A DNA stretch of 37,413 nt from Mediterranea sp. (in: CFB group bacteria) (GTDB taxonomy: Bacteria; Bacteroidota; Bacteroidia; Bacteroidales; Bacteroidaceae). The stretch's first letter is position 1, and each line of letters opens with the position of its first letter. The stretch covers positions 1-37,413 of the forward strand of contig JAIRNG010000009.1 in assembly GCA_031258135.1 (NCBI GenBank), given 5' to 3'. The notes under the pieces were generated by a model. It did no database searches. It was given only the letters and a program-made list of their open reading frames with translations, and was not told the DNA's origin. Shown piece by piece: positions 17,142 through 37,413 of this stretch. The translations under genes and the position numbers were made by a program.

Positions 17142-17303
17142 CAGGGTACTGTAAGCCCACTTTCAGGGTACTGTAAGCCCACTTTCATGGCCGATGAAAC
17201 TTGGCTTACATGTACCGTAAGCCCACTTCCCTCGGCGAGGGAACTATGGTTACTCCGACAGGGAACTACGGTTACTCCGCCAGGGAACTCGCGTTACCCG
17301 TTA
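17142..17303. repeat. Two 22-bp-period direct repeat arrays with an internal hairpin
   Basis: This is the only structured part of the 594-nt gap 16880-17473. CAGGGTACTGTAAGCCCACT starts at 17142 and again at 17164 (22 bp), with a diverged third copy (TGTACCGTAAGCCCACTT) at 17211. Between them, 17172-17188 pairs with 17194-17210 (15 of 17), so one copy is inverted. A second array, AGGGAACTxxGGTTACTCCG, starts at 17238, 17260 and 17282 (again 22 bp). The rest of the gap holds the beta-galactosidase leader and a short AAATCC/GGATTT hairpin at 17396-17414 that may terminate the minus-strand GNAT gene. No convincing gene is seen. Confidence 0.75.
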
Positions 17304-20154: not shown

Positions 20155-20799
20155 TTATGCGGTTTGCAACCGCATGATACGTTTCCATTTTAAATAGCCA
20201 AAGATAGCGATTATTGTATAAAGCAAATACAAGGCAGAGGTAAGATTTAACTCTTTATAAGTATATAGCCCCGAACTTATGATATTTACACCAATCCAGA
20301 CAAGCCATTGTTCCACATATTTCCGGGCAAGCATCCACATTCCCGCAATGCTTAATGCAGTCGTAAAACTATCCAGAAAAGGAACGGTGCTATCAGTGAA
20401 AGCAATGAGTATCCAGGCGATAATTCCGAATGAGACGATGAATGTCAGCGTGAGAGGCAAAATGAATTTAACCGGGGTGTGCGTTATGGGCAACTCCCCT
20501 TTTCCATGCTTTCCGTTTCCGAAACTCCAATAGATCCACCCATATATCGCCGCAAACAGATAATATACGTTAATGCCGGTATCCGCATATAATCCGGCGT
20601 CGTAATAAACGAAGATGTAGATAGCCGGCATGATCATACCGGCTATCCACAGATAGATACTGGCCTTGTACTCCAACCAAAGGTATACCAGACCGACGAC
20701 TGTTCCGGATATTTCCAATACAGCCTCACCCCAGCCCTCTCCAAAGGAGAGGGGGAAGAGGGAGAAGAGAACGAAAAACGGATAAAATAACGTGATCAT
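20155..20799 (-). CDS. pnuT: PnuT-type thiamine transporter (PnuC family) with repeat-derived N-terminus
   Basis: Inner-membrane facilitator of 214 aa with about seven helices. PnuC-family features are the LEISGTVVGLVYLWLEYKAS start, AAIYGWIYW, and the terminal LYLLYTIIAIFGYLKWKR helix. Position between a riboswitch-controlled receptor and thiamine pyrophosphokinase assigns it to thiamine (PnuT) rather than nicotinamide riboside. Oddly, about 15 residues before the family core (FPLSFGEGWGEAV) are encoded by a palindromic repeat (20721-20753). A TTG at 20718 immediately before LEISGT, preceded by GGGGTGAGG, is an alternative start that would give a protein of normal family length. ATG 20799 is 12 nt after the receptor stop. 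Confidence 0.88.
   Translation of the reverse strand: MITLFYPFFVLFSLFPLSFGEGWGEAVLEISGTVVGLVYLWLEYKASIYLWIAGMIMPAIYIFVYYDAGLYADTGINVYYLFAAIYGWIYWSFGNGKHGKGELPITHTPVKFILPLTLTFIVSFGIIAWILIAFTDSTVPFLDSFTTALSIAGMWMLARKYVEQWLVWIGVNIISSGLYTYKELNLTSALYLLYTIIAIFGYLKWKRIMRLQTA
20721..20753. repeat. Palindromic repeat element, copy 1 (in the pnuT 5' end)
   Basis: CAGCCTCACCCCAGCCCTCT followed by CCAAAGGAGAGGG. The core is CCCTCTCC-AAA-GGAGAGGG, with 8-bp arms and a 3-nt loop. It differs by one base (A for G) over the shared 33 nt from the two copies at 36510 and 36573. It is translated within pnuT. Confidence 0.8.
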
Positions 20800-25107: not shown

Positions 25108-25170
25108 GCTCGCCGACGGCGTCGGGAAGAAAAAACATGTATGTGACGGCTCGCCGACGACGTCGGGAAG
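25108..25170. repeat. Direct repeat containing a CCGACGnCGTCGG palindrome
   Basis: GCTCGCCGACGGCGTCGGGA occurs at 25108 and again, with one base changed (A for G), at 25149, 41 bp apart. Each contains the palindrome CCGACG-N-CGTCGG and is followed by an A-rich stretch. It lies just after the BlaR1-like gene. Confidence 0.7.
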
Positions 25171-25177
25171 CAAAAAA

Positions 25178-25204
25178 ATCCGTGTCATCCGTGTCATCCG
25201 TGTC
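25178..25204. repeat. Three tandem ATCCGTGTC units (CACGGAT repeat family)
   Basis: ATCCGTGTC is repeated three times end to end with a 9-bp period. The same family appears at 34230-34290, 35184-35253 and 37229-37380. Confidence 0.85.
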
Positions 25205-25253
25205 CTTAGGATAGAAAACTTCCGTTAAAAGCTCCCGTAGAGAGCATACTCCA

Positions 25254-34229: not shown

Positions 34230-34282
34230 AACGCGGATAAACGCGGATAATTAACGTTAAAATATCCGTGTTCATCCGCGTT
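34230..34282. terminator. Hairpin made of CACGGAT-family repeats between mdh and peroxiredoxin
   Basis: AACGCGGATAAACGCGGATA (34230-34249) pairs with 34263-34282 at 18 of 20 positions, and the two mismatches can form G-U pairs on one strand. A further CGTTATCCGTGT unit follows. It lies between convergent genes and could end both transcripts. Confidence 0.6.
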
Positions 34283-34355
34283 ATCCGTGTACCCTCCTGT
34301 CTGAGCTAACCGTCGACTGTTAACTCCCGTACAAAGCAACTACCGGTTCACATGA

Positions 34356-35179: not shown

Positions 35180-35183
35180 GAAA

Positions 35184-35253
35184 ATCCGTGTCATCCGTGT
35201 GATCCGTGTCCTTTAATTATATTTTAGACACGGATTTCACGGATTACACGGAT
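35184..35253. repeat. Inverted pair of CACGGAT-family triplets
   Basis: Three ATCCGTGT units (35184-35210) face three ACACGGAT-type units (35227-35253) across a 16-nt AT-rich loop, 24 of 27 positions complementary. This forms a large potential hairpin. Confidence 0.8.
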
Positions 35254-35263
35254 TCCTGATTTT

Positions 35264-35367
35264 TGCAGGCAACTTTCCGATTTTTGCAAGCAACTTTTAG
35301 GGTAAATGCAAGCAACTTTTAGGAAAATGCAAGCAACTTTTAGGGTAAATGCAGGCAGCTTTTTTAA
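35264..35367. repeat. Five-copy array of ~21-22 bp TGCAAGCAACTTTTAGG units
   Basis: TGCAGGCAACTTT/TGCAAGCAACTTTTAGG units begin at 35264, 35285, 35307, 35328 and 35350, with steps of 21, 22, 21 and 22 bp. The outer units are the most diverged. There are no spacers between units and no coding potential. Confidence 0.85.
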
Positions 35368-35821: not shown

Positions 35822-37207
35822 ATGTATCATTATTTGCGATTAAGATTATATCGGTACCTGCTGTTCGCAGGTCTGTTTCTGGCCTTCCCGCCCTGTGTAG
35901 GTCAGGTATCCTTCCCCGTCCGGACCGCGGCGGATTCCCTGTATCGTCATATTTCCCGTGGGATGAGCGACAGGGTGAGTTGCCATTTCACTTACGCCCA
36001 GGGTAGCAGTACGATTTTCCCCGGATTAGGTAATAATGCGGCGGAGTTGAAGAAGCTGGATGCGTTTGTCGCTCAGGCGCTCTCCTATTCCAACCTGTCC
36101 ATTTCCCGTATCCGGTTGACCGGTTACTGTTCCATCGAGGGGAGTTCGACGCGGAACGAGGCATTGTCTTACGAACGGGTGGAGGGTTTCTACCGGTATC
36201 TGCACGAGCATTACCCCCGTCTTTCCCGTTATCCTTACGACCAGACCTGGGCGGGGGAAGACTGGGCCGGCCTGTCCGAGCGTGTCAAAGCTTCCCGGAT
36301 CAACGAGCGTGAAGAGGTGTTGGAAATCATCCGCCGCGTTCGTTCGTATGATACCCGTGAGGCCCTGTTGGCGAAGTTGAACGGCGGCCGCCCCTGGCTT
36401 TTTATGGAGCATGAGATTTTCCCCCGGCTTCGCCGCGTGGAGTTGCGGATAGAGTATGCGAAAGCCCAACAAGCAGCCCACGAACCTGCAGCCGAAGCCC
36501 GCGAACCTGCAGCCTCACCCCGGCCCTCTCCAAAGGAGAGGGAGAAGAAAAATGATACCGCATGGTCTTCCTCCCTCTCCTTTGGAGAGGGCCGGGGTGA
36601 GGCTGCGGGTGCCCGGGGTGAGGCTGCGGGTGCCCGGGGTGAGGCTGCTTTCCGTTTCGCCCTTAAGACCAACCTGTTGCTTGCCGCCGGCGTTCAGTCC
36701 GACTTCAGCTATACCGCTCCCGTGGCCAACGCGGCGTTGGAGTATTTCATCACGCCAAGCTGGTCGGTGGAGGCGGGCGCTATGTACAGCTATTGGAGTT
36801 TCAATTCCGGCAAAGAGTTCCAGGGCGTTTCCGGTTACCGGCTGGAGCCCCGCTACCGGTTGGCTTTCCCGGGCGACCGCTTCGGAGTGTACCTTGGACT
36901 TTACGGCCGGATGGGTGATTATGACAGCCGGACAATAGACAGGAAACAAGGGACAACTGACGGCGGCGATGCGCAGGCCACACTCAACTATACGGGTGAC
37001 TATTGGGATGCCGGGGTTTCGGGTGGGTTCACCCTCCGGTTGGTGGGGAACCTGGGGTTGGAGATTGGCGTCCGTGGCGGATACGTGGCCACATCCCCCG
37101 ATAAATACACCCGCGACGGTGGACGGAACCGGTGGGAGAGCCGCTGGAAATACAACAAGGTGGGTGTAACGGACATCAACCTTAGTATCATTTACAATTT
37201 TCAATAA
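35822..37207 (+). CDS. OmpA-like/DUF3575 outer-membrane protein with repeat-built linker
   Basis: A 461-aa envelope protein with signal peptide YRYLLFAGLFLAFPPCVGQ (cleavage near residue 28). The N-terminal domain is OmpA-C-like (~45-215; ISRIRLTGYCSIEGSSTRNE, LSYERVEGFYRYLHEHYP), the peptidoglycan-binding fold. The C-terminal domain (~278-461) is DUF3575-like and probably a small beta-barrel (FRFALKTNLLLAAGVQSDFS to VGVTDINLSIIYNF). Between them, residues ~218-277 are low-complexity (EPAAEAR-EPAAS, SPRPSPKERE, LSFGEGRGEA, GARGEAA twice), encoded by repeat DNA. In related genomes DUF3575 genes often open fimbrial (FimA/Mfa1-type) loci, so such a locus may continue past the right edge; that is inference. 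Confidence 0.85.
   Translation: MYHYLRLRLYRYLLFAGLFLAFPPCVGQVSFPVRTAADSLYRHISRGMSDRVSCHFTYAQGSSTIFPGLGNNAAELKKLDAFVAQALSYSNLSISRIRLTGYCSIEGSSTRNEALSYERVEGFYRYLHEHYPRLSRYPYDQTWAGEDWAGLSERVKASRINEREEVLEIIRRVRSYDTREALLAKLNGGRPWLFMEHEIFPRLRRVELRIEYAKAQQAAHEPAAEAREPAASPRPSPKEREKKNDTAWSSSLSFGEGRGEAAGARGEAAGARGEAAFRFALKTNLLLAAGVQSDFSYTAPVANAALEYFITPSWSVEAGAMYSYWSFNSGKEFQGVSGYRLEPRYRLAFPGDRFGVYLGLYGRMGDYDSRTIDRKQGTTDGGDAQATLNYTGDYWDAGVSGGFTLRLVGNLGLEIGVRGGYVATSPDKYTRDGGRNRWESRWKYNKVGVTDINLSIIYNFQ
36479..36647 (+). repeat. Inverted palindromic-element pair plus 21-bp tandem repeats inside the DUF3575 gene
   Basis: CGAACCTGCAGCC occurs at 36481 and 36502 (21 bp apart). Palindromic element copy 2 starts at 36510, and copy 3 lies inverted, ending at 36605. 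The outer 35 nt of each (36510-36544 and 36571-36605) are exactly complementary across a 26-nt spacer. Then GCCCGGGGTGAGGCTG recurs with a 21-bp period to 36647. The whole block stays in frame. Confidence 0.88.
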
Positions 37208-37225: not shown

Positions 37226-37413
37226 AAAAAGACACGGATTTCACGGATTGCACGGATTTTACAACTCTCACGGATGAATACGGGTTTTAAACACAGAGAC
37301 ATGGAGTTACGGAGTTACACGGAGATAAAAAGAGAAAAGGAGAAAGTGGACACGGATTACGCGGATGAACACGGATTTCCATGCGGCATCGTAATTTTCA
37401 ATTTTCAATTTTC
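37226..37413. repeat. Dispersed repeats at the right edge
   Basis: The 206 nt after the DUF3575 stop are almost all repeats: CACGGAT units with 9-10 bp spacing (37230-37275), a second family (ACACAGAGACATGG, GGAGTTACACGGAG; about 37291-37325), CACGGAT units again (37350-37378), and a 7-bp-period AATTTTC run to the edge. Confidence 0.75.

What the first reader, a model, noticed from the sequence alone, without database searches (positions are those of the whole stretch)
36510..36605. Palindromic element inserted in frame as an inverted pair in an outer-membrane protein
Two copies of the same element face each other inside an open frame, with 35 exactly complementary bases across a 26-nt spacer. 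They add about 32 residues to the linker between the OmpA-like and DUF3575 domains without breaking the frame. The mRNA should form a long hairpin in mid-gene. The layout is also that of a tiny invertible segment. In-frame palindromic elements are known from Rickettsia (RPEs); I know of no comparable description for this family.
Basis: partly seen in the sequence, partly recalled or inferred. Interest (0 to 1): 0.7.

Follow-up and report, generated by a model that had tools for sequence, protein, structure and literature searches.

The report
In-frame palindromic elements with nuclease relatives
A short palindromic DNA element occurs in dozens of copies in this gut-type Bacteroidales genome, often in frame inside working genes, and longer relatives of it carry a homing-endonuclease-like domain that is translated in the middle of core enzymes, which points to a kind of mobile DNA that lives inside proteins without any sign of being spliced out.

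Summary
In detail: window 36510-36605 holds two exactly complementary 35-nt arms around a 26-nt spacer, in frame in a DUF3575 ORF. It is one copy of a dispersed element: 73 core matches in the 2.43-Mb MAG, 0 for the reversed control. Of 71 kept copies 44 lie inside ORFs (22 N-terminal, 12 C-terminal, 10 internal); 29 of the 31 ORFs match a Pfam family. The RPE-like reading therefore holds.

DUF559 models like homing endonuclease I-Bth0305I. Twelve of the 30 DUF559 domains sit in frame in housekeeping proteins (LeuRS, MetH, IcmF, SpoIID, PurL, M23), one of them in this genome. No intein or catalytic-RNA signature was found.

Best explanation: the pair is a non-autonomous member of a palindrome-DUF559 mobile family that persists as unspliced in-frame insertions. 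Mobilisation by DUF559 is inferred, not shown. An invertible switch is not supported.

The parts
35822..37207 (+). Host ORF, 461 codons, C-terminal DUF3575 domain, weak OmpA-like match
36510..36544 (+). Left arm: tail CAGCCTCACCCCGG plus hairpin CCCTCTCCAAAGGAGAGGG; read as ASPRPSPKERE
36545..36570 (.). Spacer of 26 nt with the core CCATGCGGTATC on the - strand
36571..36605 (-). Right arm, exact reverse complement of the left arm; read as SLSFGEGRGEA
36474..36641 (.). Wider imperfect inverted repeat (71-nt arms, 85%), with 21-nt tandem modules 36475-36516 and 36592-36633
   Evidence: I1, D8, D12
20721..20753 (+). Second copy in the window, a single arm (97% of the first)
   Evidence: (D5, I2)
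20155..20799 (-). PnuC-type ORF (NMN_transporter, PF04973) whose residues 16-26 are coded by the single arm

Best explanation
The pair is one copy of a mobile palindromic family that inserts in or beside genes and survives where the reading frame stays open. Inside genes it becomes a short S/P/G/E/R-rich linker or tail. Full members have the order arm - DUF559 nuclease - arm; short pairs like this one are non-autonomous derivatives, as MITEs are of transposons. Likely working: the Vsr/EDxHD-type nuclease, made as a domain of its host protein or from a free-standing gene, nicks or cuts at palindromes or at an empty target, and repair copies arm-bounded DNA into the break. Selection on the host gene keeps only in-frame copies in loops and termini, and afterwards protects them from deletion. 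Shown here: dispersed in-frame copies; DUF559 between arms of this family; DUF559 in frame in unrelated enzymes; presence and absence at one gene site. Inferred: nuclease activity, copying, mobilisation of short pairs in trans, absence of protein splicing.
For: 73 core matches against 0 in the control. 44 of 71 kept copies in ORFs, 29 of 31 such ORFs with a Pfam family. Two relatives alike: 23 of 41 examined copies in G069 and 8 of 19 in G073 lie in ORFs. In this genome one pair encloses DUF559 in frame inside SpoIID. Family palindrome on both sides at 20 of 30 DUF559 loci, 0 of 29 Y1 loci (Fisher p 1.4e-8). DUF559 in 19 of 20 palindrome carriers against 16 of 34 non-carriers tested (p 3e-4). 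Embedded in LeuRS x4, SpoIID x3, IcmF x2, MetH, PurL-type, M23; 8 of these 12 have the palindrome on both sides. 30 of 120 listed host proteins carry two or more DUF559 motifs. SpoIID: insert in G000, G073, G064, short loop in the 13 others aligned. DUF559 tree joins domains of unrelated hosts, LeuRS with IcmF 96/89 and MetH with M23 97/91. Embedded domain under purifying selection, ratio about 0.08. Invariant E15, D43, E54, D56, H60 in 29 of 29; model pLDDT 90.4 matches homing endonuclease I-Bth0305I, E 2.6e-5.
Against: No experiment. Y1 transposases also co-occur with the palindrome by genome: 15 of 17 carriers against 7 of 17 non-carriers (p 0.01), so co-occurrence alone does not single out DUF559. 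10 of 30 DUF559 loci lack paired family palindromes, and 16 of 34 tested non-carriers have DUF559. Only one of three DUF559 matches in this genome lies between element copies. The spacer core of short pairs was not found beside the DUF559 of this genome or at loci of other genomes then held. No target-site duplication was defined. The palindrome pattern is loose and the loci are the best scoring, not random. The inverted-flank score alone does not discriminate (20 of 30 against 16 of 29).
Confidence: 0.62

Rival explanations
1. RPE-like element of unknown enzymology; DUF559 is only cargo or a frequent neighbour that jumped between palindromes and does not move the short pairs.
For: Short pairs outnumber DUF559 copies (71 against 3 matches in this genome). 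Spacers of short pairs and DUF559 copies are not shown to be related. One palindrome carrier, G194, has no DUF559 match.
Against: 20 of 30 against 0 of 29 flank test; purifying selection on an embedded domain; homing-endonuclease-like model.
Confidence: 0.25
2. REP/REPIN system: the arms are REP sequences moved by a RAYT (Y1 tyrosine transposase), and intragenic copies are accidents.
For: Palindromes in inverted pairs; intragenic REPs are described (PMC3733652, section 15 read). Y1 domains in 15 of 17 carriers examined against 7 of 17 non-carriers.
Against: 0 of 29 Y1 loci have the family palindrome on both sides. G000 has only a 153-codon Y1 frame and a truncated one, G073 and G285 none; G000 and G073 are only 82-83% complete.
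Confidence: 0.07
3. The inserts are removed after translation or transcription: inteins or introns.
For: LeuRS and other essential hosts carry them. PMC9403480 (passages) mentions a DUF559 gene of EDxHD type in its section on intein-containing genes.
Against: No intein family among Pfam matches of the 16 embedded hosts or NCBIfam matches of 6; no Rfam family in 19 loci, 68 kb; the frame stays open through arms and insert.
Confidence: 0.04
4. Tiny invertible segment that switches the linker of this surface protein.
For: Perfect inverted repeat; spacer core seen in both orientations in homologues.
Against: The same pair geometry occurs in many unrelated genes and between genes; inversion would leave the arms unchanged and alter only about 9 residues. 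No reads.
Confidence: 0.02

Closest known systems
Rickettsia palindromic elements (RPE)
   Same: Palindromic, dispersed, in frame in unrelated genes; about 150 bp, 44 insertions reported in R. conorii (PMC10969869, passages)
   Different: Bacteroidota; arms built of tail plus hairpin; many N- and C-terminal fusions; full-size relatives carry a nuclease domain. Homology to RPE sequences was not tested.
REP / REPIN with RAYT
   Same: Short GC-rich hairpins in inverted pairs, tens of copies; intragenic cases known (PMC3733652)
   Different: No family palindrome flanks a Y1 gene (0 of 29); DUF559 instead (20 of 30); over half of the copies lie in ORFs here (44 of 71)
Inteins with homing endonuclease
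   Same: Nuclease domain in frame inside essential enzymes
   Different: No splicing domain found; bounded by palindromic DNA arms
EDxHD homing endonucleases (I-Bth0305I)
   Same: Fold of the nuclease; DUF559 is assigned to EDxHD in PMC9403480 (passages)
   Different: I-Bth0305I is treated with group I intron endonucleases in PMC3943268 (passages); here no intron and the nuclease lies in the host reading frame
MITEs
   Same: Short, non-coding-by-themselves inverted-repeat derivatives of a larger element; in-frame fusions occur (PMC10969869, passages)
   Different: Proposed partner is a nuclease, not a transposase; not proven

Membership tests
RPE-type in-frame palindromic element | Many dispersed palindromic copies | tested here: met
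   73 core matches, control 0
RPE-type in-frame palindromic element | Copies in frame inside unrelated functional genes | tested here: met
   44 of 71 copies in ORFs; 29 of 31 ORFs with a Pfam family
RPE-type in-frame palindromic element | Sequence homology to RPE families, Rickettsiales host | not tested
   No RPE sequence was fetched; the host is of the Bacteroidota (one search names relatives)
REP/REPIN-RAYT | Cognate Y1 transposase gene flanked by the palindrome | tested here: not met
   0 of 29 Y1 loci; L051 was dropped for want of a left flank
REP/REPIN-RAYT | GTAG or CGTC tag at one end | tested here: not met
   Aligned copies end in CAGCCTCACCCC and in GGGAG/GGGGG (by inspection)
Intein | Splicing domain around the nuclease | tested here: not met
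   No intein family at E <= 0.001 in Pfam (16 embedded hosts) or NCBIfam (6 hosts)
Group I/II intron with homing endonuclease | Catalytic RNA around the nuclease | tested here: not met
   No Rfam family reaches its threshold in 19 loci
EDxHD / Vsr-type endonuclease | Fold and conserved acidic/histidine residues | tested here: met
   29 of 29 domains; 3r3p E 2.6e-5, 1vsr E 0.015
EDxHD / Vsr-type endonuclease | DNA cleavage | not testable with these tools
   -
Invertible DNA switch | Both orientations in one population | not testable with these tools
   No reads

The most novel reading that the evidence does not exclude
A class of selfish DNA, spread patchily over the Bacteroidota, whose habitat is the inside of proteins: palindromic arms that read as harmless linkers carry an EDxHD/DUF559 homing-type nuclease, which is expressed as an unspliced internal domain of core enzymes (LeuRS, IleRS, MetRS, MetH, SpoIID) and also mobilises arm-only pairs that decorate tens of other proteins per genome. 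It would be neither intein, intron, REPIN nor RPE as described.
Probability: 0.45. Interest if true: 0.93.

Novelty: new variant of a known kind. Interest (0 to 1): 0.8.

Why it matters
How in-frame palindromic elements spread through protein-coding genes has, as far as I recall, been open since RPEs were described, because no enzyme was tied to them. Here an enzyme candidate lies between arms of the same family, so the question can be tested directly. If true, many annotated core enzymes of Bacteroidota carry an unspliced selfish nuclease, interdomain linkers evolve by capture of elements, and S/P/G/E/R-rich linkers in annotations may be fossil mobile DNA.

Tried and rejected
RAYT as partner: Y1 domains sought in 34 genomes; by genome they too go with the palindrome (15 of 17 carriers, 7 of 17 non-carriers), but none of 29 loci has the family palindrome on both sides. 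Splicing: no intein or catalytic-RNA family. Inverted-flank score by itself: 20 of 30 DUF559 but also 16 of 29 Y1 loci, so not used as an argument. Special stop-avoidance by the window pair: 4 of 6 frames open, reached by 216 of 2000 shuffles, so not remarkable. Common spacer core between short pairs and DUF559 copies: not found; 0 hits in the 19 stretches of G073 and 2 in the 20 of G069. Stringent palindrome in 61 genomes of genus and order: only the own genome; looser forms in 23 of 99 genus genomes and 20 of 296 of the phylum. The genome-contig scan gave 4 named loci, none with the element.

Literature: searches, in an open-access library only. One search found 14 papers with 'DUF559'; I read passages of four (PMC12907096, PMC11079077, PMC12308824, PMC9403480). 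None of those passages describes palindromic arms or insertion into housekeeping enzymes; PMC12308824 reports repeated transposase/DUF559 segments as recombination hotspots, and PMC9403480 a DUF559 gene of EDxHD type.

Faults of mine: the printed alignment holds wrong ORFs for L085 and L086; only L152, L153 and P0001 were used from it. An earlier count said 16 of 36 non-carriers and 'most' loci flanked; the counts are 16 of 34 and 20 of 30. The regular expressions (25 of 61 linkers with a motif) miss degenerate cases visible.

Full report
The observation. Arms 36510-36544 and 36571-36605 are exact reverse complements of 35 nt around a 26-nt spacer. The imperfect repeat goes on outward to 71-nt arms at 85%, with 21-nt tandem modules on both sides. 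It lies in an open frame of 461 codons with a DUF3575 domain. The stretch 36470-36650 folds as RNA at -148.4 kcal/mol, z -16.6, none of 200 shuffles as stable. The description is right; the element-like part is larger than stated and makes up most of the 66-residue linker.

The element in its genome. The window is contig 17 of a 2.43-Mb assembly in 171 contigs, 82% complete. The core CCTCTCCAAAGGAGAGG has 73 matches (64 exact, 6 with one mismatch, 3 with two), 37 and 36 per strand; the reversed control has none. Copies share a tail CAGCCTCACCCC(G/A)(G/A) before the hairpin and mostly occur as converging pairs 43 to 504 bp apart. Of seven compact pairs (43-49 bp) six share a spacer core like CCATGCGGCATC. 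Some contigs begin or end at a copy, as repeats do in assemblies.

In frame inside genes. I dropped two 2-mismatch matches that lack the tail and kept 71. Of these 44 lie inside ORFs of at least 150 codons: 22 within 60 residues of the N-terminus, 12 within 60 of the C-terminus, 10 internal; 27 are outside. All 31 element-bearing ORFs were scanned with Pfam and 29 match a family at E <= 0.001; the two without are C72 and C111. Internal copies lie in five genes: DUF3575, carbamoyl-phosphate synthase large chain, two FAD oxidoreductases and SpoIID; the tenth 'internal' copy is in the unverified C72 ORF. In MetH and Fmt, among the N-terminal cases, no ATG lies between the element and the conserved domain, so translation seems to run through it (inspection; GTG and TTG starts not excluded). 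C-terminal cases include RsmH and polyphosphate kinase. All three frames of either arm are used; the third frame of the right arm holds a TGA and ends the polyphosphate kinase ORF. In G069, 23 of 41 copies (20 stretches; 71 matches in that genome) and in G073, 8 of 19 (19 stretches; 26 matches) lie in ORFs of at least 120 codons. ORF calls are mechanical and starts are not proven.

Permissive sites. At one CarB loop G000 has 105 residues between two conserved blocks (blocks included), ten of eleven relatives are short (54 in the one counted) and G001 has 80, with an unrelated inverted repeat. In the DUF3575 family the linker runs from 36 to 145 residues in 61 proteins; 13 of 61 carry both arm-coded motifs and 25 at least one. 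A paralogue in the same genome has a 70-residue linker of unrelated sequence. So in-frame insertion is upheld, but a net gain of 32 residues is not. The window pair is not unusually poor in stops.

The nuclease link. In this genome one pair, in SpoIID, has its cores 423 bp apart and encodes DUF559 in the same frame. Of the 30 best DUF559 loci from 80 genomes, 20 have a palindrome of this family on both sides within 300 bp; of 29 Y1-transposase loci treated alike, none (p 1.4e-8). The pattern is loose, four stem types with one mismatch, which is why the Y1 control matters; loci are the best-scoring ones. Over genomes, 19 of 20 palindrome carriers of the phylum sample have DUF559, against 16 of 34 non-carriers tested of 276 (p 3e-4); the 34 were taken from the top of the list. 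Y1 domains show a like tendency, 15 of 17 against 7 of 17 (p 0.01), so it is the flank test that singles out DUF559.

DUF559 inside enzymes. In 16 of 30 loci the domain is in a long ORF with other domains: LeuRS four times, SpoIID three, IcmF twice, MetH, a PurL-type protein (C-terminal), an M23 peptidase, and four restriction-modification proteins in which a nuclease may be native. Of the 12 others 8 have the palindrome on both sides. In LeuRS it precedes the editing domain in three and follows it in one. NCBIfam agrees for six hosts. A region search found 1041 proteins of 570-1825 aa; among the 120 listed are MetH, LeuRS, IleRS, MetRS, RecG-type, UDP-glucose-dehydrogenase-type and GH31 hosts, and many helicases where it may be native (some Pfam names from recall). 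30 of these 120 carry two or more DUF559 motifs, several with arm-like stretches such as SPSPKERG or GEGRGEA beside them. A second region search gave 19 proteins, with PncC-type and chorismate-synthase-type hosts added and a SpoIID case named Bacteroides sp. 51.

Movement and selection. SpoIID matches in 43 of 50 genus genomes; of 16 aligned, G000, G073 and G064 carry DUF559 at one loop and 13 have a short loop. The DUF559 tree joins domains of unrelated hosts, LeuRS with IcmF (96/89) and MetH with M23 (97/91); embedded domains cluster (5 changes, 2 of 500 shuffles as low), though the larger embedded group itself is weakly supported (87/64). Between G000 and G073 the embedded domain has pN 0.14 and pS 0.70, ratio of corrected distances about 0.08, like its host (0.12 and 0.09), while the arm regions are much more diverged; in G073 the right arm is in direct orientation. 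E15, D43, E54, D56 and H60 are invariant in 29 of 29. The model (pLDDT 90.4) best matches 3hrl and the I-Bth0305I catalytic domain, with Vsr lower (E 0.015). PMC9403480 (passages) already assigns a DUF559 gene to the EDxHD homing family, so that part is in print.

Mechanism. Best supported: a palindrome-bounded mobile family whose full form carries a Vsr/EDxHD-type nuclease and whose short form is the window pair. The nuclease is thought to cut at hairpins or empty sites, and repair copies the element; what survives selection is in-frame copies in loops and termini; a nuclease inside a needed enzyme is expressed with it and hard to lose. The steps from nuclease to copying are inference. No intein or catalytic RNA was found, so the inserts are probably left in the protein; that is untested.

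Against it. Spacers of short pairs and of DUF559 copies are not shown to be related, DUF559 occurs without this palindrome, 10 of 30 loci lack paired palindromes, only one of three DUF559 matches in this genome lies between copies, and no target duplication was defined. DUF559 as cargo of an RPE-like element is the main rival. The invertible switch has little support.

Comparison. By behaviour the window element is RPE-like, and I file it as a new variant of that kind; homology to RPEs was not tested. It is not a REPIN by the tests made. What may be new in kind is the arm-nuclease-arm form living unspliced in enzymes. My searches covered an open-access library only, and neither the listings nor the passages I saw describe it.

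Noticed in passing
L277 (G001 CarB loop): Another, unrelated inverted repeat (read QLTIDNGQLTM ... HLSTVNCQLPF) sits in frame at the same CarB loop, so more than one palindromic family may use in-frame sites.
   Followed up: no
P0086-P0205, 30 of 120: Host proteins with two or more DUF559 motifs, P0086 (MetH) with three.
   Followed up: partly
L322 (G069 C65:35800-38800): A 598-codon ABC-type ORF with two element pairs at two different places, both in frame.
   Followed up: no
N-terminal copies in G000, e.g. C2, C35, C64, C165: Interiors of many longer pairs read MDKQ/MEKQ...KEVTSS before the right arm: the start codon lies between the arms, as if the pair straddled translation starts.
   Followed up: no
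window 35264-35349 and 17146-17253: Local tandem arrays with units of 21-22 nt, unrelated to the element (D1 and D2).
   Followed up: no
window 25166-25207, 34264-34295, 35181-35254, 37230-37258, 37345-37376: A further dispersed repeat built of ACGGATT / ATCCGTGT units, in both orientations, outside the long ORFs (D3, D4, I4).
   Followed up: no
P0026, P0034, P0048, P0042 (DUF3575 homologues): Linkers with other arm-like peptides (TTSPLRGTPPRAG, TPSPSERGGERL, TPSPLERAGVRP), perhaps other palindrome families at the same linker.
   Followed up: no
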